Shown: positions 1 through 27,152 of the stretch, piece by piece
How positions within the stretch are numbered: the stretch's first letter is position 1
How the letters are laid out: each line of letters begins with the position of its first letter
Source: Campylobacterales bacterium
GTDB lineage: Bacteria > Campylobacterota > Campylobacteria > Campylobacterales > JAOZPA01
DNA length: 35,634 nt
Direction of reading: 5' to 3'
NCBI GenBank assembly: GCA_029932985.1
Contig: JAOZPA010000003.1
Location: 1 to 35,634 of the forward strand
Made by a program: the position numbers and the translations under genes
Notes under the pieces: generated by a model
Seen by the model: only the letters and a program-made list of their open reading frames with translations
What the model was told of the DNA's origin: nothing
Databases searched by the model: none

Positions 1-558
1 GAATATGATTTAAAATTATCGGAAGATGATATGATTTTTTTGGAAAAATTGCTAGAGAAAGAGAAAGTTTATCTTGATATTTACAAAGAGGAAAATTTAA
101 AGATGAAATTTATTTCACAAATTTTAAATAGGGTTGATTTTGTTATTAATGATGAGATAAGAGATTTTTATGATGAAAAACTTTTATATGAAACAGATAA
201 ATTTATTTTGAATGGTGAGACAGATTTTATGGTGGCTAAAGGTTTGGAAGAATCTGAAAAACCCTATTTTTTTATCCAAGAGTTTAAACAAAATGAGGAA
301 TATGGAAATCCACGACCACAACTTTTGGCTGAACTTATCTCTGCAATTGAGTTAAATGGTTGGAAAACTATAAAAGGAGCTTATATTATTGGAGTTAATT
401 GGAATTTCGTAATTTTAGAGAAATTAGGAGAAAAAAAATATCAATATTTTATAAGTGAAAAGTTTAATAGCTCTAAAATAGATGAGTTAAAAGCGATTTA
501 CAAAAATCTACTTTTCATAAAAGCGGAAGTAATTAAAATGGTTGATACAGGGATTTAA
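1..558 (+). CDS. PD-(D/E)XK nuclease-like protein, 5'-truncated by the window edge (copy A)
   Basis: The ORF is open from base 1 (EYDLKLSEDDMIFLEKLL...). It is strongly similar to the ORF at 1161-1922. The TDF...FFIQEFK core resembles a D-(E)xK nuclease signature. Confidence 0.6.
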   Translation, partial: EYDLKLSEDDMIFLEKLLEKEKVYLDIYKEENLKMKFISQILNRVDFVINDEIRDFYDEKLLYETDKFILNGETDFMVAKGLEESEKPYFFIQEFKQNEEYGNPRPQLLAELISAIELNGWKTIKGAYIIGVNWNFVILEKLGEKKYQYFISEKFNSSKIDELKAIYKNLLFIKAEVIKMVDTGI

Positions 559-597
559 ATCCCCAAACGAAAATAAACCATCGGTGAGGGGACTGAA
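548..597. repeat. 50-bp repeat, copy 1 (cagggatttaaatccccaaacgaaaataaaccatcggtgaggggactgaa)
   Basis: 47/50 identical by eye to 1912-1961. It contains the palindrome GGGATTTAAATCCC, which spans the stop codon of the upstream CDS. Confidence 0.85.
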
Positions 598-631
598 AAC
601 TTTTCTAATTTAGATAAAGAAGGAATATATT

Positions 632-1171
632 ATGTTAGCTAGAAAATATGAGGAGTTTTACACAGCTGAAGATTATCAAAAGTGGAAGGGAGATTGGGAA
701 TTAATTTATGGTTCTATTTACCCTATCATCTCTTATTCTATTCTTACACATCAAATTATTAATGGTAAAATATTAAAACAATTGAGTAAAAAATTAGATA
801 ATTGTTCTAGTTGCCAACCTTCTTTTTCAATAGATTGGGAAATTTATAATGATACCGTTGTTAGACCAGATACGATTGTGATTTGTTATGAGCCAGATGA
901 AAAGTTGACGAAAAAACCTGAAATTATTTTTGAGATAGCTTCACCTTCGACGATTAAACGAGATGAGACTGTTAAATTTGATATTTATCAAAATGAGGGT
1001 GTGAAATATTATATTATTGTGTATCCTAAAAAACAGATTGCAAAAGTTTATAAATTGCAAAATGGGCGGTATGTGAAAGAGAATGATTTTAGTAATGAAA
1101 ATTATAATTTTGAGATGGGTGAGTGTAATATAGATTTTAATTTTTCAAAAATTTGGCGATTTGCTTTATAA
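632..1171 (+). CDS. Uma2 family (DUF820) PD-(D/E)XK-type protein
   Basis: Residues VRPDTIVICYEP...PEIIFEIASPST match the Uma2 PD...E(I/V)xSPST signature. AAGGA ribosome-binding site upstream. Confidence 0.8.
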   Translation: MLARKYEEFYTAEDYQKWKGDWELIYGSIYPIISYSILTHQIINGKILKQLSKKLDNCSSCQPSFSIDWEIYNDTVVRPDTIVICYEPDEKLTKKPEIIFEIASPSTIKRDETVKFDIYQNEGVKYYIIVYPKKQIAKVYKLQNGRYVKENDFSNENYNFEMGECNIDFNFSKIWRFAL

Positions 1172-1922
1172 GAAGGAGAACAAAATAGCTGATTTAGATA
1201 AAATAACTTATGAAGATTTTTTAAAGTTACAAAAAATATTTAAGGACAATAAAAAATCTAAAAATGGAAAAGATAGTTATCCTTATAGTGAGATGACAGA
1301 TACAAAACTGGAAAAATTAGTAGATATTGAGCAAAAAATCAATCATTCAAAATTTGACAAGTGGTTTAATAACTCTATAATTTTAGATGAAAAAATCAGT
1401 ATTTTTTTAGATGAACTTTTAAAAAAAGAGGGTGATTATATAGATATTTATGATGAGGAAGATTTGAAGATGAAATTTCTAAGTCCGATTTTTGTAGATA
1501 TTAATTTTAAAAATGAGAATTTTAGAGATTTTTATGACCATAAATTAACTTATGAAGCAGATAAATTTATATTTAATGGCAAAACTGATTTTGTAATTTC
1601 CACAGGATTAAGACGACCTAAAAAACCATATTTTTTTATTCAAGAGTTTAAAAGACGAGAAAAAGATGGATTCCCAAGACCACAACTAATAGCCGAACTT
1701 ATAAGTGCAGTTGAGCTTAATAGTTGGAAAAATATTAAGGGAGCTTATTTAGTTGGAGAGATTTGGAATTTTGTAATTCTGGAAAAATTGGGAAAAGATA
1801 AATATCAATATTATATTAGCAAAAATTTTGATAGTAGTGATATAGTTGGATTAAAAAATATCTATAAAAATCTTCTATTTATCAAAGATGAGGTGATTAA
1901 AATGGTTGATGCAGGGATTTAA
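1161..1922 (+). CDS. PD-(D/E)XK nuclease-like protein (copy B)
   Basis: Full-length paralog of copy A (FYDHKLTYEADKFIFNGKTDFV...PYFFIQEFKRRE...PRPQLIAELISAVELN). The track start is TTG at 1161; a better Shine-Dalgarno match points to an ATA at 1185. Confidence 0.65.
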   Translation: MLYKKENKIADLDKITYEDFLKLQKIFKDNKKSKNGKDSYPYSEMTDTKLEKLVDIEQKINHSKFDKWFNNSIILDEKISIFLDELLKKEGDYIDIYDEEDLKMKFLSPIFVDINFKNENFRDFYDHKLTYEADKFIFNGKTDFVISTGLRRPKKPYFFIQEFKRREKDGFPRPQLIAELISAVELNSWKNIKGAYLVGEIWNFVILEKLGKDKYQYYISKNFDSSDIVGLKNIYKNLLFIKDEVIKMVDAGI

Positions 1923-1981: not shown

Positions 1982-2725
1982 ATGATTATGAATTTTTATA
2001 GTGTGATTATAGGTAGTGAGCTTTTAAATGGTCGGCGACGGGATTCTCATTTTGATTTTTTGAATAAAGAGTTAATAAAGCGAGGATGGGAGCAAAAGGG
2101 AAGTTTTGTTATTAAAGATGATTTTAAGTTGATTGAAGATATTTTTAATTTGATTAAAAGTGATGAAAAAAGTGTAATGTTTAGTTTTGGTGGGATTGGC
2201 TCGACTCCTGATGATATTACTCGGGCGGTGAGTGCTGAAGTATTTGGCGATGGGAAATTACATATTCACGATGAAGTTTTTAAGATTATAATTGATAAAT
2301 TTGGCGATGAGGCGTATCCTCATAGAATTAAGATGAGTGAGTTGCCAAAAGATGCGGACCTTTTGAAAAATGTGGTAAATAATATTCCTGGATTTCAGAT
2401 GAAAAATCGGTTTTTTTTCACCCCAGGATTTCCGTCGATGGCTCAATCTATGGTGGTGGAGGCTTTGGATAATTTTTATCCACAACACAAAGCAAAATTC
2501 CGTGAGGGGTTTTTAGCCCAAAGTAGCGAGAATGAGTTTATTAATTTGATGAATGAAGTTCCGCCGTCGATAGAGCTTTCGAGTTTGCCGTCGATGGTTG
2601 GAGAGAAGCGAGAGGTTGAGATTTCACTGCTTGGAGAGAGTAAAGATGAGGTTTTAAAAGAGTTAAATAGATTCATAAATTATATGAATGAGAAGAAAAT
2701 AAATTTTACAAATAAAGGAAAATAA
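1982..2725 (+). CDS. Molybdopterin-binding / CinA N-terminal-like (MoCF domain) protein
   Basis: Residues IIGSELLNGRRRDSHFDFLNKEL...MFSFGGIGSTPDDITRAV match the MoCF_biosynth / CinA pattern. Confidence 0.85.
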   Translation: MIMNFYSVIIGSELLNGRRRDSHFDFLNKELIKRGWEQKGSFVIKDDFKLIEDIFNLIKSDEKSVMFSFGGIGSTPDDITRAVSAEVFGDGKLHIHDEVFKIIIDKFGDEAYPHRIKMSELPKDADLLKNVVNNIPGFQMKNRFFFTPGFPSMAQSMVVEALDNFYPQHKAKFREGFLAQSSENEFINLMNEVPPSIELSSLPSMVGEKREVEISLLGESKDEVLKELNRFINYMNEKKINFTNKGK

Positions 2726-3243
2726 TGGATATTACAAAAATCAAAGTTGGGGATAACCCAGAGAAAATAAATGCAATCATAGAGATACCTTACGGTTCAA
2801 ATATAAAATATGAGATAGATAAAGATAGCGGTGCGGTCGTGGTTGATAGATTTTTATACTCAGCGATGTTTTACCCAGCAAATTATGGTTTTGTGCCAAA
2901 TACATTATCAAATGATGGCGACCCAGCGGATGTTTTAGTATTAAATGAAGAGCCATTACAAGCAGGTTGTGTGATTAGTTGCCGATTAATCGGTGTTTTG
3001 ATGATGAGCGATGAAGCGGGAATTGATGAGAAACTGTTAGCAGTTCCAACCTCAAAACTTTCACCAAAATATGATGAGATAAAATCTTATGAAGATTTAC
3101 CGAAAGCAACTCTAGCAAAAATTAAAAATTTCTTTGAAACATACAAAATGCTAGAACCAAATAAATGGGTAAAAGTTCAAGATTTTAAAGGCAAAGAGGA
3201 AGCAACGGAAATTTTGCAAAAAGCAATTAACGACTATAAATAA
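2725..3243 (+). CDS. ppa: Inorganic pyrophosphatase
   Basis: Residues IPYGSNIKYEIDKDSGAVVVDRFLYSAMFYPANYGFVPNTLSNDGDPADVLVL are the family I PPase signature. Confidence 0.97.
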   Translation: MDITKIKVGDNPEKINAIIEIPYGSNIKYEIDKDSGAVVVDRFLYSAMFYPANYGFVPNTLSNDGDPADVLVLNEEPLQAGCVISCRLIGVLMMSDEAGIDEKLLAVPTSKLSPKYDEIKSYEDLPKATLAKIKNFFETYKMLEPNKWVKVQDFKGKEEATEILQKAINDYK

Positions 3244-3261
3244 TCTTTTGGATTATTGTTT

Positions 3262-3285
3262 GGCAAAGAATTTATCTACTTTGCC
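3262..3285. terminator. Intergenic hairpin GGCAAAG...CTTTGCC
   Basis: Perfect 7-bp inverted repeat between the convergent genes ppa and GGDEF/EAL. Confidence 0.4.
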
Positions 3286-3318
3286 CTATTGGTAGGAGTC
3301 TAAAATCTCCTACTAGGG
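3284..3318. terminator. Intergenic long hairpin CCCTATTGGTAGGAG-TCTAAAAT-CTCCTACTAGGG, likely bidirectional terminator or repeat
   Basis: Near-perfect inverted repeat in the convergent intergenic region. Confidence 0.55.
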
Positions 3319-3325
3319 TTAAAAA

Positions 3326-4921
3326 TTAAATTCTTCGTTGGGGGAGGGAGATGAAGCAACCTAGTGCAAAATCTATACCCAACTCTTTAACTTTATTGAA
3401 TATCGATACATTATCTATACATTCTGCAATAGTTTTTACATTTGCATTTTTGCAGTAGGCGATAATCTCTTTGATAACCTCCTCTTTGTCTTTTCGGGTG
3501 TCAATATCTTGGATTAACTCTTTGCTGATTTTTAAATAATTTAAATTCAGGTCTCCTAGTTTTTCATATCTACTGTAATTATGACCTAAATCTTCGATTG
3601 CTACTTCGCAACCAAAAGCTTTAAATCCTCGCAAGATTTTATCGATATTATAGTAGTTTTGGAACTTATCAACTTTGATTACTTCAATGATAATTTTATG
3701 TCCAATTTTATATTTTTCGATTGTGCTTAATAGTGAATCTGCAAGTTGTGGGTTTAGCAAATCCTCTTTATAGAAATTTATAACAAATTTAAAATCTTTA
3801 TTTTTGTAATAATATAGGGCAGTTGTGAACATTTTGTAGATTAAGCGAGTGTAGAGATTTGCTTTTCGGGCAACTTCCAAAAAGTCATCAGCCACATAGA
3901 TATTGCCATCTTTATCTTCGATTCTTATCAAAGTTTCATATCCATCTATTTTATTTGATTTGAGATTTAAGATGGGTTGATAGTAGGGTGTAACGAGGTC
4001 GTTATCTATTGCATAGATGATAATGGATTTCATTTTTGCCTCTTCACTACTATTTACGGAAAATTCGGGGTTGAAGAGATAGTATGGGGTGGAGTGTTTT
4101 TTTGCATAGATGACAGCACTATCAGCATCTTGGAAAAGTTTTTTATTTCCTTGGGCAGAACCAATAGTGATTTTGGGGTCGATGATATTATTTTTTACTT
4201 TAAATTTCTGTTTTTCTAAAAATTTTGAAACTCGTTTAAAATATTCTGCCAAATCCCACCTTGTGACATGCACTGTTACTAGCATTGCAAACTCATTTGC
4301 ATAGGAGTGGTATATTACTGTATTTTTAGTGGGTCTTTTGTCGTAAAGAAGTTGTGCTAAATCTTTGATGACAATATCCCCAACATCATATCCAAACTCT
4401 AAATTTATCTCTCGTAGATTGTCGAGATTGAATAAAACAAGGGTAAATTCCCGTTTTTTACTAATATTTGCTAAATCAGAAAAAAGTTTTTCACGATTGA
4501 AAAATCCTGTTTTTATATCAATATGTTTATTTCTATCAATCTCCTCTTTGACATTTTTTGGATTTGTGATATTTGTGAGAATTACCAAAATCCTCTCCAG
4601 TGAAGCATCTGTGATTTCGGGCATCACCACGGCATAAAAATTAAATATAGTTTTATCGATTCTCAGCTCAATCTTGCCCTTAAACTCAAATCTATTATTG
4701 ATTGCACTTTTTAGTGCATTATTATTTTTTCTAAACTCATTTGTGTCTGATAAAAAAGAGAGAAAATTCCTATTTTCAAAATTTAAAATTGAACGATTAA
4801 CCAAAAATAAAAAATTATCATTTGCATCTTTTATATTTCCATACGAATCCAACTCAAGAACACCAAAACCATAATTTAATACTTTCTTATAAAAAAAAAG
4901 TTTATTTCTAATATCAGCCAT
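3326..4921 (-). CDS. PAS-GGDEF-EAL domain protein with a degenerate GGDEF site
   Basis: Residues [15 protein letters not shown]...[32 protein letters not shown]...YANEFAML (GGDEF fold, motif lost), then GYETLIRIE...VINF...EDLG...LKIS...IAECID (EAL). The MADIRNK start is preferred; the track ORF extends to 4963. Confidence 0.85.
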
Positions 4922-6062
4922 CATCTCCCCTTTTATGATAAAAATCTTTTTTAAACTCCTCAAATCTATCCAACATAATCGCCCCTCTCATCTCTCTCAT
5001 TAAATTCAAATAATAGTGAAGATTATGCAAAGTTGCAAGTCTAAAATAACTAAGCTCTTTAGCCCTATAAAGATGATTGAGATAACCTCGTGAATAATTT
5101 TTGCAAGTTAAACATTCACACTCCTTATCTATCGGCTCAGGGCTTGACTTAAATCTCGCCGCCTTAATATTAATTTTGCCAAAGGAGGTAAAAAGAGTCC
5201 CATTTCTAGCATTTCGACTGGGCATCACACAATCAAACATATCCACTCCACGAGCCACATTTTCCACCAAATTCTCAGGAGTTCCAACCCCCATCAAATA
5301 TCGAGGCTTATCTTTTGGCATAAACTCCTTGACATACTCGACCGTATCATACATATCCTCTTTGTCCTCCCCCACCGAGAGTCCCCCAATCGCATATCCA
5401 TCGAATTTCTGATTTTTATACTCAAGCCCCACCAACTGCTCTACGGAAAGTTTTCTAAACTCTCTGTCTGTTCCACCTTGGATAATTGCAAAAATATTTT
5501 GATTAGTTCCGATGCCATTTTCTTTGGAATTTATGTGGTGAATTAAAGATTCTTTTGCCCATTTTGTAGTACGATTAATGGAGGTTGTTAGCCTCTCTTT
5601 GGTCGCTGGAAGTGCGATTAAATCATCGAGAATCATCATAATATCGCTTCCTAAATCATACTGAATATCCAGAACTTTTTGAGGGGTAAAGAGATGTTTT
5701 GAGCCATCAATATGACTTTTGAACTCAATCCCCTCATCGCTATTTTTTGTATTTGAGTTTAGCGAAAAAGCTTGAAAACCCCCACTATCGGTGAGAAAAC
5801 TTAGGTCAAAACCTGTGAATTTATGAAGTCCACCAAGAGTTTTAATAATTTTAGAGGAGGGTCGAAGATAGAGATGATAAGTGTTGCCTAGTATAATTTT
5901 GGCATCAAGAGTGTTCATCAAATCAAAACTATCCAAACTTTTGACACTAGCGGAAGTTCCCACGGGCATAAAAACGGGAGTCTGGATGGTGCTATGGGTG
6001 GTTTGCAAAACTCCAGCTCTAGCAGAACCAGATGTTTTTTTAACTTGAAATTTCATGTGCAT
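4914..6062 (-). CDS. tgt: Queuine tRNA-ribosyltransferase
   Basis: Residues [14 protein letters not shown]...[12 protein letters not shown]...[12 protein letters not shown]...[10 protein letters not shown]...[13 protein letters not shown]...CECLTC. Confidence 0.97.
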
Positions 6063-6118
6063 ACTTTCTATGAATTTTCTTTTATTTTACCTAAAAACCT
6101 TTTAAAGTTTGTTACAAT

Positions 6119-6499
6119 TTAGAAAAAATTTAGGAATTTGTAGCCGATGGATGCAAAAATTATTGTTAAAATGACATTTAGTAAAATATTTAAAACTCCC
6201 ATAAGGTAGTTTCCACCCTCAAGAAGTAGAAAAGTTTCAAAAGCAAAAGTGGAATATGTGGTGAAAGCACCCATAAATCCTGTGGTGAGTAATGATTTGA
6301 AATGTACGGGGATTGAGATTTGTGTGAAGATGAAAAATAGCATTCCTAAAAAAAAGCTACCAATGATATTGACCCCTAATGTGCCAAAAGGGAGGTAATT
6401 ATGGGGGAGATGGTGGTTTATTACACCGACCATATAAGCTCTAGCGACTGCTCCCATAAATCCACCGCTACCGATTGCTAGAAGGGTTGTTAAGCTCAC
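6119..6499 (-). CDS. crcB: Fluoride exporter CrcB/Fluc
   Basis: Residues GSGGFMGAVARAYM...PFGTLGVNIIGSFFLGML...TTGFMGAFTTYSTFAFET. Confidence 0.95.
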   Translation of the reverse strand: MSLTTLLAIGSGGFMGAVARAYMVGVINHHLPHNYLPFGTLGVNIIGSFFLGMLFFIFTQISIPVHFKSLLTTGFMGAFTTYSTFAFETFLLLEGGNYLMGVLNILLNVILTIIFASIGYKFLNFF

Positions 6500-7166
6500 T
6501 TTCCAAAACCTTTTTCATATTTTCTCTCATCTCTTCATACCAATTTTCCTCTTTTTTATCTATTAAATCGAGATAGATAATTTTGATTGTGCCAAAAGAG
6601 GAGAGGATTTTTTTTGAATCTAAAATATTATTTGAATTGATTATAATAATTGGTTGAATTTTCAGATTTAATTTTTGACAAATGAGCTTTGAACCATCTT
6701 TAAAAGGGAGAAGTTTTGTGCCATCCCCTCTCGTTCCCTCTGGAAACATCGCTATTGTTCGTTTGTTTTTGAGTCTATCTTTGATGTCCTTAAAGAGAGA
6801 GATTAAAGAGCGTTTGCTTTGCCTATCAACCTCTATCATTTTAGGAAGTTTTAGGATATTGCCAAAAAATGGAATTTGACCAATCTCTTTTTTGGCGACC
6901 CATGAGAGATTTTGTGGGTAATGCTCCTCTAAAACTACAATATCTAAAGGGCTTTGGTGATTTAAAAGTAAAATGTCTGCTTCTAAGTTTGGTTCACCTA
7001 TAATCTGTGTTTTGTATCCAATTAAAAACTTTTGGCTTTTTGCCCATATTTTTCTAATTTTCCAATTAAATTTTTTAAAAAAATACATCAAAATTATGAT
7101 AACTGCAACGGTAAAAGCAAACTGGAATATAACCCAGAAAGCTTTAATCTTCAATAATATCTTCAT
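6468..7166 (-). CDS. plsC: 1-acyl-sn-glycerol-3-phosphate acyltransferase
   Basis: NHQSPLD (HX4D) and FPEGTRGDG acyltransferase motifs with an N-terminal membrane segment. Confidence 0.92.
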   Translation of the reverse strand: MKILLKIKAFWVIFQFAFTVAVIIILMYFFKKFNWKIRKIWAKSQKFLIGYKTQIIGEPNLEADILLLNHQSPLDIVVLEEHYPQNLSWVAKKEIGQIPFFGNILKLPKMIEVDRQSKRSLISLFKDIKDRLKNKRTIAMFPEGTRGDGTKLLPFKDGSKLICQKLNLKIQPIIIINSNNILDSKKILSSFGTIKIIYLDLIDKKEENWYEEMRENMKKVLESELNNPSSNR

Positions 7167-8205
7167 TTTTTATCCATCCTACAGAATCATTTGGGAGTAA
7201 GATTTTAATCAAATCCTCTCTTTTGTTTAATATTTGAACCTCTTGTGTTGAGGGAGCGATATAGAAAATTGTGGAATTTTTGGTTGGCAAAATACTTACC
7301 TTTGTATCTTTTGCAATGGTCACTTTAATAATTGGATTTTGATAATATAGTGCATATATCCCAATAATGGTGGCGATGACTGTAAAAATAATACTTCGAC
7401 GAAATATTGCAATTAGTAAAAATAATACAGCGATTAATACGAGGGCGATAGTTTTGTATATTGTAAATCGATTTTTATTTGGATTTAACTCTATCTGAGT
7501 GACAACTTCATCATTTGAAAGCTCTATTGGGATTGTGAAATTTATAAATTTATTGTGGGTTAAATTAAAATAGTTAAATTTAAAACTTTTTACTTTTCTA
7601 TCAATTATTAAATAGTAGTAGATTTTGGTTTCGGGGAGATTAAGCTCTTTTGAATTTATCCCATCTTGTCTTACAAATGAGAGTTTAAAATCCTCTAAAT
7701 TTGAATTTAATGCTTCAATTCTTAAAACAACTATATTATGTTGAGAATCAAAATTTGTGCTTTTATATTTTGAGATTATTAAATTTTTAGCTAATACACC
7801 ACTAAAACTTTTATTAGGATTTAATTTTTTAGTTTTAACTGGAAATGGATATAATGCCTCTGAAACTCTTCTTGTTTTTCCTGCATTATATTTTATTTTT
7901 ATAACTGGCAACTTAAATTTATGGTCAGTAATTTTATAAAAAAACCGATTGGAGTAAGTGTTTTCCTCATCTAATTTCCATCTAGCACCCTTGTTTAAAA
8001 TTTTAATATTATTGGATTTTAAGAATTTTGTTTGAATATTTGTTAAATTATCTAAGGTGATAATAACTTTTAGATTTACCTCAAAAACTTCACCTATAAA
8101 AACTTTTTTTGGAGTTTGAGTATATGAAAGGTAGGAAGATTTTGAAAAAAGATTTGTTGAAAACAAACCAAGAATCAAAATTAGAAGAAAAACTGCTCTA
8201 AGCAC
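7144..8205 (-). CDS. Secreted/membrane protein with C-terminal SH3-like domain, conserved hypothetical
   Basis: N-terminal signal peptide, two transmembrane segments (TIALVLIAVLFLLIAIF, IIFTVIATIIGIYAL), and an SH3b-like tail (VSILPTKNSTIFYIA...VQILNKREDLIKILLPNDSVGWIKNEDI). Confidence 0.6.
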   Translation of the reverse strand: MLRAVFLLILILGLFSTNLFSKSSYLSYTQTPKKVFIGEVFEVNLKVIITLDNLTNIQTKFLKSNNIKILNKGARWKLDEENTYSNRFFYKITDHKFKLPVIKIKYNAGKTRRVSEALYPFPVKTKKLNPNKSFSGVLAKNLIISKYKSTNFDSQHNIVVLRIEALNSNLEDFKLSFVRQDGINSKELNLPETKIYYYLIIDRKVKSFKFNYFNLTHNKFINFTIPIELSNDEVVTQIELNPNKNRFTIYKTIALVLIAVLFLLIAIFRRSIIFTVIATIIGIYALYYQNPIIKVTIAKDTKVSILPTKNSTIFYIAPSTQEVQILNKREDLIKILLPNDSVGWIKNEDIIED

Positions 8206-12608: not shown

Positions 12609-13289
12609 TTATTTTTTATATTTAAATGCTTTTTTCAAAATATTGCACTTAATTTCTGTTATTAACATTTCAACTTTTTCTGAACTATTATCTATTTGCT
12701 CTTTTAAATTTTTAGTTGCATTAGAGTATCTTTTTTCACCATGAGCTATCGCATTTCTATCATTTAAAAGTTTTTCTATAAATTTTTTTTCTATATTGTC
12801 AATAGATTCTATATCAAATTTATTTAAAAGATTTTGCAATATTTCTAAACTTAAATTTGATTTTGTATTTATAACTTCATTTGAATCTATTTCCATTATT
12901 TCTTTATTAAAATACAATTTTTTAAAATTATCTATCCCTTTCAATCTCTTTTCTGCACTATTTTGTGTAAAAATTTTAATAGTAGGGTAAAAAAGAAGGT
13001 CTAAAATTTTTTCATCATAATTGTTTATATTTAAATATTCATCTTTTAATAATTTATTTAAAAATTTTATATAACTTGTTAATTGTGATTTTACACTACC
13101 TTCCCAATGGGCATAAATTAATGCTATAAAGCCCCTAACCAAAAAACTAAATTCTTGATTAGATTTAAATTTAGAATCAAGTTCATTTCTTAAATTTGCT
13201 AACTCCTTTTTTCGCCAAGATAAATCTTTATTTAAGCTGTCTTCTAGGTTTTCTATTGCCTTATCGAACATTAAAATATTGTGGAGCAT
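12609..13289 (-). CDS. MAE_28990/MAE_18760-like HEPN domain protein (predicted RNase effector)
   Basis: Residues RKKELANLRNEL...RGFIALIYAHWEGSVK...NLSLEILQNLLNKF...LLNDRNAIAHGE. The Rx4H (RNAIAH) HEPN catalytic motif is intact. The probable start is the internal Met at 13271. Confidence 0.8.
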   Translation of the reverse strand: MLHNILMFDKAIENLEDSLNKDLSWRKKELANLRNELDSKFKSNQEFSFLVRGFIALIYAHWEGSVKSQLTSYIKFLNKLLKDEYLNINNYDEKILDLLFYPTIKIFTQNSAEKRLKGIDNFKKLYFNKEIMEIDSNEVINTKSNLSLEILQNLLNKFDIESIDNIEKKFIEKLLNDRNAIAHGEKRYSNATKNLKEQIDNSSEKVEMLITEIKCNILKKAFKYKK

Positions 13290-14373
13290 TTTTTAAAAAG
13301 TTATCTATTCTATTTTTTACTTTAGAACCTTGTTTTGAAGATTCAATAAACCATTGTTCGTTTTCTATCTTATCTATCTTTTCTTTAATCAAATTTGTAT
13401 TATTTTCTAGTTTGTCTAAATATGGGAAAAGTCCAATAATTAATGCTTCAAATTTTGAAATTTTAAAACTTCCTAAAAATCCTTTTCTATTAATTCTTCT
13501 AAAAACTTTAAAATCAAAATTTTTATTTAAAAAATTGAAAAATGTATTAAAATTATTTTCTAATTTTCCAATATCATTAATATTTAAATCATCTCTTATA
13601 TATCCATCAAGAAACTCTTTTACAGATAAGTTGTAACTAGATATTTTTCTAGGAATTTCTATATAAGCAAAAAATTTTACGATAAGTTCTTCATCATAAG
13701 CTTCGTTTTTTTGCTTTTCTGATAATTGTATTATATTCATAAAATTTTCATTTTTGGCCAATCTTTTAATAAACTTAATAGCCTCAGGTTTTTCAATCAG
13801 AAAAATAGCATTTCTAATCTCTTGATTTGCAAGAGGCGAACCACTAGAATTTAATCTATCAAATAACTCATATTTTGTGGATTTATCACTATCTCTTTTA
13901 ATTACTTGTATATAAAGAGGTGTTCTTTTAAAAATTAATTTTGTTTCAAAATCAAAAAATTTTTTTGAATTTTTTTGATTTTGATTATCTTCAAAACTTT
14001 CATAAGTAATATTTTTTAAACTCGGTAAAAATTTTGTACCTACTAATTCTAATCGAGGGTAGGAATTTTTATGCTCATCAAGTAAAATTCCTACAAACTC
14101 TAAAATTGTAAATATTCTTTGTAATCCATCAATTATTTCCCATCTTCCATCCTCCATTTGTTGAACAAAAATAGATGGTATTGGTATTCCTATTAAAATG
14201 GATTCTATAAAACTAGATTTTTGCTCTTTTTCCCATCGAAAAAGTTTTTGAAATTCTGGCTGAATTACAATCTCTTTTTCTCTGTACATACTGATAATTT
14301 CACTTATCGACATTTTCATCGCTGTCGTGTGAACTTTTTTGGCATTATCTCTAATCTCTTCAGTTAAACTCAT
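13261..14373 (-). CDS. DUF262 (GmrSD N-terminal/ParB-like) domain protein
   Basis: Residues QPEFQKLFRWEKEQKSSFIESILIGIPIPSIFVQQMEDGRWEIIDGLQRIFTILEF...FDRLNSSGSPLANQEIRNAIF. Confidence 0.88.
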   Translation of the reverse strand: MSLTEEIRDNAKKVHTTAMKMSISEIISMYREKEIVIQPEFQKLFRWEKEQKSSFIESILIGIPIPSIFVQQMEDGRWEIIDGLQRIFTILEFVGILLDEHKNSYPRLELVGTKFLPSLKNITYESFEDNQNQKNSKKFFDFETKLIFKRTPLYIQVIKRDSDKSTKYELFDRLNSSGSPLANQEIRNAIFLIEKPEAIKFIKRLAKNENFMNIIQLSEKQKNEAYDEELIVKFFAYIEIPRKISSYNLSVKEFLDGYIRDDLNINDIGKLENNFNTFFNFLNKNFDFKVFRRINRKGFLGSFKISKFEALIIGLFPYLDKLENNTNLIKEKIDKIENEQWFIESSKQGSKVKNRIDNFLKNAPQYFNVR

Positions 14374-22345: not shown

Positions 22346-23320
22346 CTATAAAAAAGTTTGAAGTTTTATTAAACTATGCAAAAGATATGCACTTTTGTTT
22401 AAAGTTGTTGAACTTTTTAGCTTAAGTTCGCAAGACAAAAGATATTCAAGAATTTGTTGATATTGATTCTCATTTAATCGCCCCGATTCACTCGCCCTAC
22501 TTTGTGCAATCTGTGGAGGCAAATTATACCCCAAAATCGCCGTTGAATTAAACTGTCCATGAGTTTTCATATAAGCATAAAACATAAAAAGAGTCACCAC
22601 ATAATTTTCAATTCCATTTATAATTTTTACTTCATCATAAAGTTCCAAAATATTAGGCAACCGCACCTTAATATCCTGCTTTTTCAAAATTAAACGAATA
22701 AAATCCTCAAGCCCTAGCTCTCCGTCCCCGCACGAAAATTTGTTTATCTGCTGATATGTTATTGGTTCATTCAAAATTGACAATTTTTCAAGCTCATTGA
22801 CCGCCATTGATAAATCTTGATTAGAACTCATAAAAAGATGCTCCATTGCATAATTATCTATCTTTACACCCAGTTTTCTAGCTTCTGCCCCAATATAATT
22901 ACAAGCTTCATAGATTTTGGGTTTAAAAAATCTCACAAAATCACTATTTAACTTTTTTGAAAAACTTTTTTGCATATCTCTAGCTTTGGTAGTCTCTCCA
23001 GAAAACTGCAAGAAAAAATAACTATTTTGGGCATTATTTGCTACACCTATCAACTTTTTCAACTGCGGTGAGGGGATTTTCTGCTGATATTTAACAATCA
23101 ACACATTTATTTCACCAAACAACGACCCCTGCGAAATATGAGTCAAAGCACTTTCATAATTGAATTCATCAAAATAAAAAGATAATTTGTCACTTTGACC
23201 AATCAAATTTAATATCTGCTTTAGATAAAAATCACTCTGATAATCACACTCACCATAAAATAAAAACGACTTTGGGATTTTGTTTTGCGAAAGCATATTT
23301 TTTAATTCATTTTTATACAT
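22346..23320 (-). CDS. holA: DNA polymerase III subunit delta
   Basis: Position upstream of rpsF-ssb-rpsR, and HolA-like pattern (SFLFYGECDYQSDFYLKQIL...VLIVKYQQKIPSPQLKKLIG...AMEHLFMSSNQDLSMAVNELEKLS). Confidence 0.8.
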   Translation of the reverse strand: MYKNELKNMLSQNKIPKSFLFYGECDYQSDFYLKQILNLIGQSDKLSFYFDEFNYESALTHISQGSLFGEINVLIVKYQQKIPSPQLKKLIGVANNAQNSYFFLQFSGETTKARDMQKSFSKKLNSDFVRFFKPKIYEACNYIGAEARKLGVKIDNYAMEHLFMSSNQDLSMAVNELEKLSILNEPITYQQINKFSCGDGELGLEDFIRLILKKQDIKVRLPNILELYDEVKIINGIENYVVTLFMFYAYMKTHGQFNSTAILGYNLPPQIAQSRASESGRLNENQYQQILEYLLSCELKLKSSTTLNKSAYLLHSLIKLQTFL

Positions 23321-24273
23321 TTGTCTCCTCTATACCAAAAATAGTGTTTGAAATTAAAAGTTTTTAATTTTCTTTGATAATAAATAATATCTATATTTTT
23401 ATCATTATATACATCATTTAAAAATTGATAAATTTCATATTCATATAGGTCTATATATTCTTTAATATCTTTTAATATCAATATTTTTTTTATTTTTAAT
23501 ATAATTTCATCAGATTCCATATATATAGCTAATTCATAAATATTTAAAATATCTATAATTCTCCAACTAGAAATTAGTGATTGGTATTTGTTCAAGTTAT
23601 CTATAAAGAATTCTTTTTGATGATTTAATAGATTACATTCTAATAGTGTTGTAATTTTTAATACTTCAAAATTATGTAATTTTTTTGCGAATAAGCATAA
23701 TTCATTTAACCATTTTGGATTATTAAGGTAATCTTTTGATTCTCTAATTGAGATAAGCTCATATAAAGTTATCGTTTCATATAGTTCATTATTTTCATTA
23801 AAAAAATATTTTTTATATTGTATTAAATTGTAACTTTCTTGATAAAATTCAGAGGTATATATTTTTTTAATTAAATAAAACCAGAATAGAGAATTATTAG
23901 TCCTAATATTTTTTTGAATATTCTCAATAACTATCCTATCTATATTATTATTTGTAGATATTTCCATCCATTCATAAAAATAATTCATATAGTTTTCTAA
24001 AAGTATCTCTTTATTAGAATATAAATTAAAAAAATAATTATATTTTTCCTCTATAATCTTAGTTAAATGAATAATATTAACCTTTTTACTTCTCATTAAA
24101 TTTAAAATTTTTATTTTTTCCTCTTTTTTTATTGGAGAAAAAGCTAAATTATTTATAATTTCATTATCATAATTCTTTAATTTAAATAGATTCTTTTGAC
24201 TTTTTGTTAATGGAAAGTCATAACTAATATTTTTTATATCAAATAAAGAATCAAGAAAATATTTATAATTCAT
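23302..24273 (-). CDS. Hypothetical helical protein (323 aa), cassette gene 4
   Basis: Long AT-rich ORF that starts inside the end of the ATPase gene and ends inside holA. Predicted all-helical from its I/L/K/N/E pattern; no family recognised. Confidence 0.7.
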   Translation of the reverse strand: MNYKYFLDSLFDIKNISYDFPLTKSQKNLFKLKNYDNEIINNLAFSPIKKEEKIKILNLMRSKKVNIIHLTKIIEEKYNYFFNLYSNKEILLENYMNYFYEWMEISTNNNIDRIVIENIQKNIRTNNSLFWFYLIKKIYTSEFYQESYNLIQYKKYFFNENNELYETITLYELISIRESKDYLNNPKWLNELCLFAKKLHNFEVLKITTLLECNLLNHQKEFFIDNLNKYQSLISSWRIIDILNIYELAIYMESDEIILKIKKILILKDIKEYIDLYEYEIYQFLNDVYNDKNIDIIYYQRKLKTFNFKHYFWYRGDKCIKMN

Positions 24274-25147
24274 CTAATTTAATACTTTTATCACTTAACT
24301 CATTATCAATATTATTTGCAATATCTTTAATACTTTGTTTATATAAATTATCATCTTTTAATATATCCCAAGCATTTCTATCATTAAAAACAATTTCCTC
24401 TTCATAAGGTATTTCCATTGTTCCTAACCAATAAAATATATTTTTTAACTCCACATTATCTTCTAAATCTGCTTTTGCTTTTATACCTTTTAATTTATCG
24501 CTGGAAATATTTGGCTTAGGTGATAAAACTCGTAAAATTTTATGTTTTTGTATTTTACTTTTTGGTAATATTTTTAATATTTCATTAGTGCCAGATATAT
24601 TTTGATTATTATATGAAGATATTATAACTTTAAAATCTACATCTTTAGAAAAAAGTATATCACTTACTTCTGTAATACCTGTTCTTGCATCAAAAAATAT
24701 ATAATCATAATAAGCAGTTTTTGATATATCCTCTTTTATAACATTAAATATATTATCTGCCACAGTTGATAAGCTATCAGTTTCAATACTTGAAGAGTGC
24801 TTGATACTATATAAAAATTGTGATAAATCAGTCAGTAAATTATGATATGGTATAATATTTTGCATATCATAAGCAGGTATCAAAGTAAGATTTTCAGCTA
24901 TTTGTTTTACTAAAATATCTTTCTTTTCATTTTCTTTAAATAAATCTACTAAATATTTTAAAAAATACTCTTTATTTTCATCTTGTTTCATTTTATCAGA
25001 AAGATAACTAAGTCCTGGTGCATAAATATCAAAATCAACTATTGCAATTTTTTTATTTTTCTCTTTAGATAAATATTTTGCTATATTTAACAAAGATTGA
25101 GTTCTGCCAACTCCACCTTTAAAACTATAAAATAATACTGTTTTCAT
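24263..25147 (-). CDS. KGGVGR-motif variant ParA/MinD-like ATPase, cassette gene 3
   Basis: Deviant Walker A FYSFKGGVGRTQSLLNIAKYL, IAIVDFDIYAPGLSYL (Walker A'), and YDYIFFDARTGITEVSD (Walker B region typical of this group). Confidence 0.9.
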   Translation of the reverse strand: MKTVLFYSFKGGVGRTQSLLNIAKYLSKEKNKKIAIVDFDIYAPGLSYLSDKMKQDENKEYFLKYLVDLFKENEKKDILVKQIAENLTLIPAYDMQNIIPYHNLLTDLSQFLYSIKHSSSIETDSLSTVADNIFNVIKEDISKTAYYDYIFFDARTGITEVSDILFSKDVDFKVIISSYNNQNISGTNEILKILPKSKIQKHKILRVLSPKPNISSDKLKGIKAKADLEDNVELKNIFYWLGTMEIPYEEEIVFNDRNAWDILKDDNLYKQSIKDIANNIDNELSDKSIKLDEL

Positions 25148-25356
25148 ATTTTGCTTTCCTTAGTAAAATAACTCGGTAATTTTTTAATAATTGGTTTAAT
25201 ATTAAATTTAATCGAATCCATAGAAAAACCATAAACAATATCTTCAAAATCATAATAACGAGAAAAATCTCTTTTATTATTAAGCTCTTCACTTAATTTA
25301 TCTATTTTTTCTAAAATAGTTTCATCTAAATTATCTAAAAATTTTTTAACTTTCAT
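25144..25356 (-). CDS. Small protein (70 aa), cassette gene 2
   Basis: ORF with overlapping stop/start on both sides, consistent with translational coupling; no family recognised. Confidence 0.6.
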   Translation of the reverse strand: MKVKKFLDNLDETILEKIDKLSEELNNKRDFSRYYDFEDIVYGFSMDSIKFNIKPIIKKLPSYFTKESKI

Positions 25357-25849
25357 TCTCTACCTTTATATGAGATATTACATCTTTGTGTTTTATGCAC
25401 AACTGTATATCACCATAAGAGAAGATTGTTTTATTCCTTTGATTTAAAGGGTCTTGTATATGTATTTTTGTCATTCTATTTTTTAAATCCATTATTGTTA
25501 CAAGTTTTATATCTACTTTTAATTCATATATTAAAAAATCTATAAATTCTCCAAAATATATCTGTTTTGGTTTAAAATATTTTAAATATAATTTTAATAT
25601 ATCTAGTTCACTATTCCAATTTTGAGAAGTAAAATTAAGCATCTCATATTGATTACACTCTAACTTAACTTCAATTACTTTTTCACTAGAATTCCAAACT
25701 TTTGCCCTATTGTAACTATCTCTCCAAACATAAAAACCTCGACCTAAAAATACATCATCACTTCGTCGTCTAAAATCGATACCATTATTTAATATTTGAT
25801 TTGCACCAATTTCACTAGTTCCATGATAACCTATTGCAAAATATTTCAT
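25346..25849 (-). CDS. Predicted ADP-ribosyltransferase-fold (PARP/DUF3990-like) protein, cassette gene 1
   Basis: Residues GYHGTSEIGANQILNNGIDFRRRSDDVFLGRGFYVWRDSYNRAKVW resemble the H (HGT) and Y (GFYV) motifs of H-Y-[EDQ] ART enzymes. Confidence 0.65.
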   Translation of the reverse strand: MKYFAIGYHGTSEIGANQILNNGIDFRRRSDDVFLGRGFYVWRDSYNRAKVWNSSEKVIEVKLECNQYEMLNFTSQNWNSELDILKLYLKYFKPKQIYFGEFIDFLIYELKVDIKLVTIMDLKNRMTKIHIQDPLNQRNKTIFSYGDIQLCIKHKDVISHIKVENES

Positions 25850-25850
25850 A

Positions 25851-27152
25851 TTAAATTTTAGAATTATCTTTCAAAATTTTAGCTACAATCACTCTATCAT
25901 CAAAGGGGATTTTTTGACCATTTATCTCTTGATGCTCCTCATCGCCTTTGCCCAAAATCAAAATTGTATCATTTTCATCCGATTCCTCAATCGCTTTTGC
26001 AATCGCTTCTTTTCTATCGGTGATTGGAAAAATATTATCTTTTCTTATCATTCCACTCAAAATATCTTTGATAATCTCCTCAGGCTCTTCGCTCCGTGGA
26101 TTATCCGTAGTCACATAAATTTTTTTGGCATATCGTTGAGCTACAATTCCCATTTGTGGTCTTTTCTGCCTATCTCTATCACCACCAGCTCCAAAAACTA
26201 CAACAATATTTGGATTTTGGATAGATTTCAAAACATTATCCATCCCATCAGGTGTATGAGCAAAATCAACTATCACCAACGGCTTGTCATTCACCCTTTG
26301 CATTCTGCCACTCACCCCTGCAAAATATTGACTCTCCTCGCAAATTTGCTCAAGCGAATAATCAGTTATCAACTTCACACTAGCGATTGAAGCGGTCAAA
26401 TTATAGATATTAAAAACTCCCACCATATCGCTACTCACTACTTGAGCATCTTGAAAATGTTGAATCACAAAATTTAGCCCATCATTTAATGAATAAGCAT
26501 TTACCTTAAAACTCGCAGATTCCTCCAGTGAATATGTATAACAATTTCGGATTTTAAAATCTATCTTACCACCATCTTTATTTATGAGTTTCAACCCCTC
26601 ATTATTAAAAAAACTACTCTTGACTTTTTTGTATTCGAGCATAGTTTTATGATAATCTAAATGGTCTTGAGAGATATTTGTAAAAACTCGAAGTGCAAAC
26701 TCCAGCCCCTCAATCCGTTTTTGAGCCAAAGCATGAGAGCTAACCTCCATCACAAAATATTTGCAATCCTCTTTTTTTGCCCTAATCAAATGAGAAATTG
26801 TTTGCAAAATTGATGGAGTGGTGAGAGATTTATCCTCTACCCTTTCATCATTTACGAAAAATCCTCTAGTCCCCTGCATCGCCACTTTTTCACCTAAATC
26901 CAAAAGAATCGAATAAATCCCAGCGGCGGTGGTGGTTTTGCCATTTGTGCCAGTGACACCTACAATTTTGATATTTAAATTTAAGCTTTTATAAAAATCA
27001 CTCACATCTATAAAGTCAACTTTTTTTTCTAATCTATTAAAAAATTTTTCATTTTGATAAGTTTTACAAAAAATAGTTTGCTCATCTAGCTCATCTGTAT
27101 TGTCGGTGAGATATTCATAACCCTCACCGCTATATTTAATCTTCAACATCAT
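25851..27152 (-). CDS. murE: UDP-N-acetylmuramoyl-tripeptide synthetase
   Basis: Residues IVGVTGTNGKTTTAAGIYSIL...LTTPSILQTI...FVMEVSSHALAQKRIEGLEF...FTNISQDHLDYH...DFAHTPDGMDNVL...VFGAGGDRDRQKRPQMG...TDNPRSEEPEEII. Confidence 0.97.
   Translation of the reverse strand: MMLKIKYSGEGYEYLTDNTDELDEQTIFCKTYQNEKFFNRLEKKVDFIDVSDFYKSLNLNIKIVGVTGTNGKTTTAAGIYSILLDLGEKVAMQGTRGFFVNDERVEDKSLTTPSILQTISHLIRAKKEDCKYFVMEVSSHALAQKRIEGLEFALRVFTNISQDHLDYHKTMLEYKKVKSSFFNNEGLKLINKDGGKIDFKIRNCYTYSLEESASFKVNAYSLNDGLNFVIQHFQDAQVVSSDMVGVFNIYNLTASIASVKLITDYSLEQICEESQYFAGVSGRMQRVNDKPLVIVDFAHTPDGMDNVLKSIQNPNIVVVFGAGGDRDRQKRPQMGIVAQRYAKKIYVTTDNPRSEEPEEIIKDILSGMIRKDNIFPITDRKEAIAKAIEESDENDTILILGKGDEEHQEINGQKIPFDDRVIVAKILKDNSKI

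What the first reader, a model, noticed from the sequence alone, without database searches (positions are those of the whole stretch)
23302..25849. Four-gene ART + KGGVGR-ATPase cassette: candidate undescribed defence/toxin system
Four consecutive minus-strand genes overlap end to end: predicted ADP-ribosyltransferase-fold protein (25346-25849), 70-aa protein (25144-25356), KGGVGR-motif ParA/MinD-like ATPase (24263-25147) and a 323-aa helical orphan (23302-24273). All are markedly more AT-rich than their neighbours and sit between murE and holA. A variant P-loop ATPase with a putative NAD-dependent effector and two small or orphan partners resembles a sensor-switch-effector architecture. I do not recognise this combination as a named system. 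Inference: the ATPase gates an ADP-ribosylating effector, with the helical protein as sensor or scaffold and the 70-aa protein as adaptor or inhibitor.
Basis: partly seen in the sequence, partly recalled or inferred. Interest (0 to 1): 0.9.

Follow-up and report, generated by a model that had tools for sequence, protein, structure and literature searches.

The report
ART toxin cassette with KGGVGR ATPase
Four overlapping genes, an ADP-ribosylating toxin-like enzyme, a tiny partner, a variant ParA-type ATPase and a helical protein, travel together as a compact cassette found in two different gene neighbourhoods; it looks like a new combination of known bacterial self-sacrifice (probably anti-virus) parts, but this has not been tested at the bench.

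Summary
Four minus-strand genes at 25849-23302 overlap end to end and are far AT-richer (17-25% GC) than murE and holA around them. Decisive new evidence: a second copy, with the same four genes in the same order and two identical overlaps (11 and 4 nt), lies on a contig binned as 'Gracilibacteria' (L063), followed there by an O-antigen-polymerase-like gene, not holA. Identities are 66% (ART), 52% (70 aa), 67% (ATPase) and 38% (helical); all four genes look constrained, so this is one inherited unit. The ART is related to CmdT, the mRNA-modifying effector of CmdTAC: PADLOC PD-T4-9_A, E=3.5e-8, with invariant H9-Y40-Q149. The ATPase belongs to NCBIfam AAA_KGGVGR, whose other members sit beside HEPN (PADLOC PDC-M28) or MqsA-like partners. 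About 100 relatives had no ART neighbour, and no other copy was found in about 400 Campylobacterota genomes or IMG/VR. Best reading: a rare toxin-antitoxin-like, probably anti-phage, cassette in which ATPase and helical protein gate an NAD-using ART. The ART fold was not confirmed (AlphaFold failed on a thin alignment); sensing, target and phage defence are inference.

The parts
25346..25849 (-). ART effector candidate, 167 aa, CmdT-like, diphtheria-toxin/PARP type H9-Y40-Q149
   Evidence: PADLOC PD-T4-9_A E=3.5e-8; profile-profile match to plasmid-type ARTs, 96.9% over residues 3-113; H9, Y40, Q149 invariant across window, L063, L047, L048; 66% identical in L063
25144..25356 (-). 70-aa protein, antitoxin or adaptor candidate, overlaps ART by 11 nt and ATPase by 4 nt
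   Evidence: 52% identical protein in the same position in L063; no family hit above any cut-off
24263..25147 (-). KGGVGR-motif (ParA/MinD-type) ATPase, 294 aa, stand-alone
   Evidence: NCBIfam NF047398 AAA_KGGVGR 114.9 bits, cut-off 90; PADLOC PDC-M28B E=3e-14; 67% identical in L063; ART-linked pair is its own deep branch, 100/100 support
23302..24273 (-). 323-aa all-helical protein, fastest evolving of the four; sensor or scaffold candidate
   Evidence: 38% identical in L063; AlphaFold2 all-helix, pLDDT 62, about 80-90 over residues 200-270; weak alpha-solenoid/TPR-like Foldseek list, none with E below 0.2; no sequence family
25851..27152 (-). murE, host gene immediately upstream (1-nt gap), boundary of the cassette
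   Evidence: 45-59% identical relatives in Campylobacterales
22346..23320 (-). holA, host gene immediately downstream, its start overlapped 19 nt by the cassette's last gene
   Evidence: relatives in Campylobacterales

Best explanation
This is a compact, mobile, four-gene toxin-type immune (abortive-infection) cassette. The first gene makes an NAD-using, CmdT-like ADP-ribosyltransferase effector. The 70-aa protein, encoded next to it as CmdA is next to CmdT, binds it as antitoxin or folding partner. The KGGVGR ATPase, of a family that elsewhere stands beside HEPN and MqsA-like partners, acts with the fast-evolving helical protein (probable sensor or scaffold) as the switch that keeps the ART off until infection or another disturbance. 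When released, the ART shuts down the cell, plausibly by modifying RNA as CmdT does. Shown: the gene unit and its recurrence, the ART family relationship, the ATPase family. Inferred: antitoxin role, gating, sensing, target, anti-phage purpose.
For: Same four genes, order and two identical overlaps (11 and 4 nt) in L063, in a different neighbourhood. All four genes are constrained, dN/dS (NG86) about 0.16, 0.27, 0.28 and 0.41, with dS near saturation. Markedly lower GC than its surroundings and absence from about 400 Campylobacterota genomes suggest horizontal arrival. ART relative of CmdT, whose triad is H-Y-[E,D,Q] with catalytic Y41 in a T-A-C system (PMC11618068); here H9-Y40-Q149. Other relatives of this ART are the second gene of short-protein + ART pairs, common on plasmids, a toxin-antitoxin-like layout. 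The ATPase family sits in two-gene modules with HEPN or MqsA/HTH partners, the HEPN form matching PADLOC's candidate system PDC-M28, and often carries TPR-like repeats. The helical gene diverges fastest, as sensors often do.
Against: No phage, prophage or dense defence-island context at this site; it sits inside a housekeeping operon. Only two copies are known. The AlphaFold model of the ART is unusable, so its fold rests on sequence. The 70-aa protein resembles no known antitoxin and lacks the LAA degron reported for CmdA. The helical protein has no detectable sequence relation to the C-terminal parts of fused KGGVGR ATPases. Nothing computed here links ATPase to ART beyond co-inheritance.
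Confidence: 0.5

Rival explanations
1. It is a toxin-antitoxin or addiction module whose main role is to keep the element that carries it (selfish stabilisation, stress response), with the ATPase as a stability or regulation factor, and not a dedicated anti-phage system.
For: ART + short-protein pairs are frequent on plasmids (ART in 66 records, 35 predicted conjugative; pair layout); a ParA-like ATPase is a typical plasmid gene; rare and patchy distribution.
Against: Neither copy has a replication, partition or transfer gene beside it, and the window copy is inside a chromosomal housekeeping operon; the KGGVGR variant forms its own family apart from partition ParA. TA and defence roles are not exclusive, as CmdTAC shows.
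Confidence: 0.27
2. Two independent modules that happen to be adjacent: an ART + 70-aa toxin-antitoxin pair and an ATPase + helical pair.
For: Each half occurs without the other elsewhere: ARTs without the ATPase and KGGVGR ATPases without ART (about 100 loci).
Against: In both known copies all four are present with the same order and the same first two junctions (11- and 4-nt overlaps), at 38-67% identity and in different neighbourhoods; the ART-linked ATPases form one separate deep branch.
Confidence: 0.13
3. A housekeeping or envelope-related gene set: the ART acts as a regulator of cell-wall or DNA-replication genes next to it.
For: It sits between murE and holA, co-directional and with almost no gap, so is probably co-transcribed; the other copy is next to an O-antigen-polymerase-like gene.
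Against: Absent from related Campylobacterales, although all those examined have murE and holA; strongly different base composition; the two neighbourhoods differ.
Confidence: 0.04
4. The first gene is not an active ADP-ribosyltransferase but a decayed or non-catalytic ART-fold adaptor.
For: It is about 30 residues shorter than the plasmid-type relatives (167 vs about 200), and the profile match covers only residues 3-113.
Against: H9, Y40 and Q149 and the surrounding motifs are invariant in both copies and in relatives, and dN/dS of the ART is the lowest of the four.
Confidence: 0.06

Closest known systems
CmdTAC (PD-T4-9), mRNA ADP-ribosyltransferase defence system of E. coli
   Same: Related ART effector (PADLOC PD-T4-9_A E=3.5e-8), same H-Y-[EDQ] triad type and Tyr position (Y40 here, Y41 in CmdT; PMC11618068), small protein encoded next to the ART.
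   Different: No SecB-like chaperone; the 70-aa protein has no detectable CmdA match in PADLOC and no LAA degron; two extra genes (KGGVGR ATPase, helical protein) take the chaperone's place.
PADLOC candidate PDC-M28 (HEPN-type partner + KGGVGR ATPase)
   Same: ATPase of the same family (PDC-M28B E=3e-14); two-part logic of a small partner plus ATPase.
   Different: No HEPN gene here; the ATPase is stand-alone (294 aa) and on a different, deep branch from the HEPN-linked clade, which is one group at 100/99.
Short-protein + about 200-aa ART pairs on plasmids and in Campylobacterota (hypothetical proteins, L032-L035, L214, L215, L217)
   Same: ART homologue, with a small gene beside it.
   Different: The small gene lies upstream and is unrelated in sequence; no ATPase or helical gene.
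MqsA-like (HTH) + KGGVGR ATPase-TPR two-gene modules
   Same: ATPase family; a helical/TPR region belongs to the module (fused there, a separate gene here).
   Different: HTH/MqsA partner instead of ART + 70 aa; the helical protein here shows no sequence relation to those C-termini.

Membership tests
CmdTAC | CmdT-type ADP-ribosyltransferase with H-Y-[E,D,Q] residues | tested here: met
   PD-T4-9_A E=3.5e-8, 5e-8 for the plasmid-type relative; H9-Y40-Q149 invariant; activity not tested
CmdTAC | CmdA antitoxin with unstructured C-terminal tail and LAA degron | tested here: not met
   70-aa protein has no PADLOC hit at E up to 1; C-termini KESKI and KGLK; LAA feature from PMC11618068
CmdTAC | SecB-like chaperone CmdC | tested here: not met
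   None of the four proteins matches SecB in Pfam, NCBIfam or PADLOC
AAA_KGGVGR (NCBIfam NF047398) | Score above the curated cut-off over the ATPase domain | tested here: met
   114.9 vs 90 bits, residues 1-192
PDC-M28 (PADLOC candidate) | PDC-M28B-type ATPase | tested here: met
   E=3e-14 over residues 2-197, but only part of the 438-position model
PDC-M28 (PADLOC candidate) | PDC-M28A HEPN-type partner gene | tested here: not met
   No PDC-M28A hit among the four proteins; the HEPN-like partner of another locus of this genome does hit weakly, E=0.008
Toxin-antitoxin system (functional class) | Toxic ART neutralised by the adjacent small protein | not testable with these tools
   Only gene arrangement is available
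Anti-phage defence system (functional class) | Protection against phage | not testable with these tools
   No experiment possible
ParA/ParB partition system | Canonical KGGVGK[ST] ParA with ParB and parS repeats | tested here: not met
   P-loop Lys replaced by Arg (KGGVGRT); no ParB-like protein; no direct-repeat array in 22800-26400

The most novel reading that the evidence does not exclude
An undescribed class of anti-phage system in which a KGGVGR ATPase with a separate helical sensor directly gates a CmdT-like RNA-modifying ADP-ribosyltransferase through a 70-aa antitoxin, showing that KGGVGR ATPases are interchangeable switches for different killing enzymes (HEPN in one branch, ART in another).
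Probability: 0.3. Interest if true: 0.75.

Novelty: new variant of a known kind. Interest (0 to 1): 0.58.

Why it matters
If true, it would connect two poorly understood sets of parts: CmdT-like ARTs, of which one is known to abort phage infection by tagging mRNA, and the widespread but, as far as the papers searched here show, unstudied KGGVGR ATPases that stand beside HEPN and MqsA-like genes. It gives a small, clonable four-gene set with two natural versions for testing how a ParA-like ATPase could hold a toxin in check.

Tried and rejected
Single-protein scan of genome contigs with the ATPase found nothing, owing to poor seed choice; a profile of the ATPase family then found L063. Searches of phages and plasmids with the ART, and of plasmids with the helical protein, gave no match. 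Viral contigs searched with ART, ATPase, helical and 70-aa queries gave no copy of the cassette. Patescibacteria (241 genomes) gave none beyond the L063 contig's own genome. AlphaFold2 of the ART with four sequences failed (pLDDT 37) and was not used. AlphaFold2 of the helical protein is moderate (pLDDT 62), with no significant structural match. The idea that the helical gene is the split-off C-terminal part of the usual about 600-aa ATPase (294 + 323 = 617) is attractive, but profile comparison shows no homology. A plasmid partition system was rejected (no ParB, no repeats). Empty-site analysis was not possible: murE and holA lie apart in the related genomes examined, so their adjacency here is itself a rearrangement. 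A weak match of the helical profile in three genomes of one genus (E about 6e-4, positions 14-78) was not followed. Literature searches for KGGVGR, PDC-M28 and ParA-like ATPase with ART returned nothing.

Full report
OBSERVATION. The four minus-strand genes are present as described: 167 aa (25346-25849), 70 aa (25144-25356), 294 aa (24263-25147) and 323 aa (23302-24273). They overlap by 11, 4 and 11 nt. The first starts 1 nt after the end of murE, and the last overlaps the start of holA by 19 nt, so the cassette is embedded in a co-directional operon without an intergenic gap for its own promoter at either edge. Ribosome-binding-like sequence precedes the 70-aa, ATPase and holA starts. GC is 0.17-0.25 against 0.26-0.39 for the other genes of the window except one pair noted below. 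Random sequence of the same first-order (dinucleotide) statistics gave a longest ORF of 124 aa in 300 trials, so the three long frames are real; the 70-aa frame is supported by conservation instead.

SECOND COPY. A family-profile scan of 85,462 species genomes found one near relative of the ATPase, 66% identical over nearly its full length. Its 4.2-kb contig (L063, JALUWO010000028.1) carries the same four genes in the same order: ART (5' end just cut), 70 aa, ATPase, helical protein, with overlaps of 11, 4 and 4 nt. Identities to the window proteins are 66, 52, 67 and 38%. What follows is an O-antigen-polymerase-like gene (my reading of the sequence), not holA. The same set in two different gene neighbourhoods, with the first two junctions conserved to the base, makes a chance neighbourhood very unlikely. 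NG86 dN/dS is about 0.16, 0.27, 0.28 and 0.41; dS is near saturation, so these are rough, but all point to constraint.

WHERE L063 COMES FROM. The MAG is labelled Gracilibacteria. Its own mraY has 24 in-frame TGA codons, as expected of that group's recoding, while the cassette contig uses TGA as a stop in three genes and has none inside. The MAG is 2.7 Mb, whereas nearly all the listed genomes of its phylum are 0.5-1.1 Mb. The contig is therefore probably misbinned from another bacterium, and no claim about Gracilibacteria should be made.

THE ART. Pfam gives only a sub-threshold exotoxin-A catalytic match. PADLOC gives PD-T4-9_A (CmdT) at E=3.5e-8. Profile-profile comparison with about 200-aa ARTs of Campylobacterota and viral contigs gives 96.9% probability over residues 3-113, and those ARTs themselves match PD-T4-9_A (E=5e-8) and, weakly, PARP. 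G7, H9, G10, L35-G36-x-G38-x-Y40-x-W42, and I148-Q149 are invariant across window, L063, L047 and L048. CmdT has an H-Y-[E,D,Q] triad with catalytic Y41 (PMC11618068). AlphaFold2 could not confirm the fold (pLDDT 37). The about 200-aa relatives occur as the second gene of short-protein + ART pairs in at least three of the Campylobacterota loci, and are on 66 plasmid records (layout looked at in four), a toxin-antitoxin-like arrangement; their short protein is upstream and has no visible similarity to the 70-aa protein here.

THE ATPASE. It passes the NCBIfam AAA_KGGVGR cut-off and matches PADLOC PDC-M28B. In about 100 relatives the ATPase domain is mostly fused to a long C-terminal region, in some clearly TPR-like, and has one of several partner genes upstream: HEPN-like (23 loci), MqsA/HTH-like (21 loci), an unnamed about 210-aa family (8 loci) and smaller groups. 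The HEPN-like partner is what PADLOC calls PDC-M28A (weak hit). None of these loci has an ART nearby. A maximum-likelihood tree puts the window and L063 ATPases together on their own long branch (100/100), outside the single HEPN-linked group (100/99); because of that long branch, its exact position within the rest is not reliable.

THE HELICAL PROTEIN. No family match. AlphaFold2 from two sequences gives an all-helical model, pLDDT 62 overall and about 80-90 over residues 200-270. Foldseek lists alpha-solenoid and TPR proteins but nothing significant. It is the fastest-evolving of the four. The summed length of ATPase and helical gene (617 aa) resembles the fused relatives, but profile comparison shows no homology to their C-termini, so a split-gene origin is only a suggestion.

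DISTRIBUTION. No further copy was found in 398 Campylobacterota genomes with the ART, ATPase or helical profiles, in 241 genomes of the L063 MAG's phylum, or in IMG/VR.

MECHANISM. The most economical reading is a toxin-type cassette: ART effector, adjacent 70-aa antitoxin or folding partner, and an ATPase plus helical protein as the sensing switch, in place of the SecB chaperone of CmdTAC. Shown: unit, recurrence, constraint, family membership of ART and ATPase. Inferred: antitoxin role, gating, sensing, RNA as target, phage defence. It is not a CmdTAC (no CmdC, no CmdA-like degron) and not PDC-M28 (no HEPN). It counts as a new variant that recombines known kinds of parts.

Noticed in passing
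window 12609-14373: A second AT-rich (22-24% GC) two-gene module: a GmrSD_N/DUF262 protein (PADLOC NsnA E=3e-56, PD-T4-2_A E=1e-38) overlapping a RiboL-PSP/MAE_28990 HEPN protein (Pfam E=2e-22); looks like another defence module in the same window.
   Followed up: partly
L044 (G000:C12) 2811-7501: The same genome has a HEPN-like + KGGVGR-ATPase (954 aa, second P-loop in the C-terminal part) pair followed by a DUF262-like gene, downstream of an apt-like and a DnaK-like gene.
   Followed up: partly
L045 (G000:C26) 2623-5139: A third ATPase of this family in the genome, with KGGMGR instead of KGGVGR, 838 aa, no obvious partner gene.
   Followed up: no
window 22346-27152: murE and holA lie far apart or on different contigs in the related Campylobacterales genomes examined; their near-adjacency here is a genome-specific rearrangement.
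   Followed up: partly
L063: A cassette contig binned as Gracilibacteria uses TGA as stop while the MAG's mraY has 24 in-frame TGA; probable misbinning in a 2.7-Mb MAG.
   Followed up: yes
window 31-1922: Two similar genes (175 and 253 aa, shared YFFIQEFK motif, restriction-endonuclease-like look) flank a Uma2/DUF820-like gene (179 aa).
   Followed up: no
plasmid records, e.g. L214, L215, L217: About 57-60-aa protein + about 200-aa CmdT-like ART pairs are found on plasmids (ART in 66 records) and annotated only as hypothetical proteins; likely an undescribed toxin-antitoxin family.
   Followed up: partly
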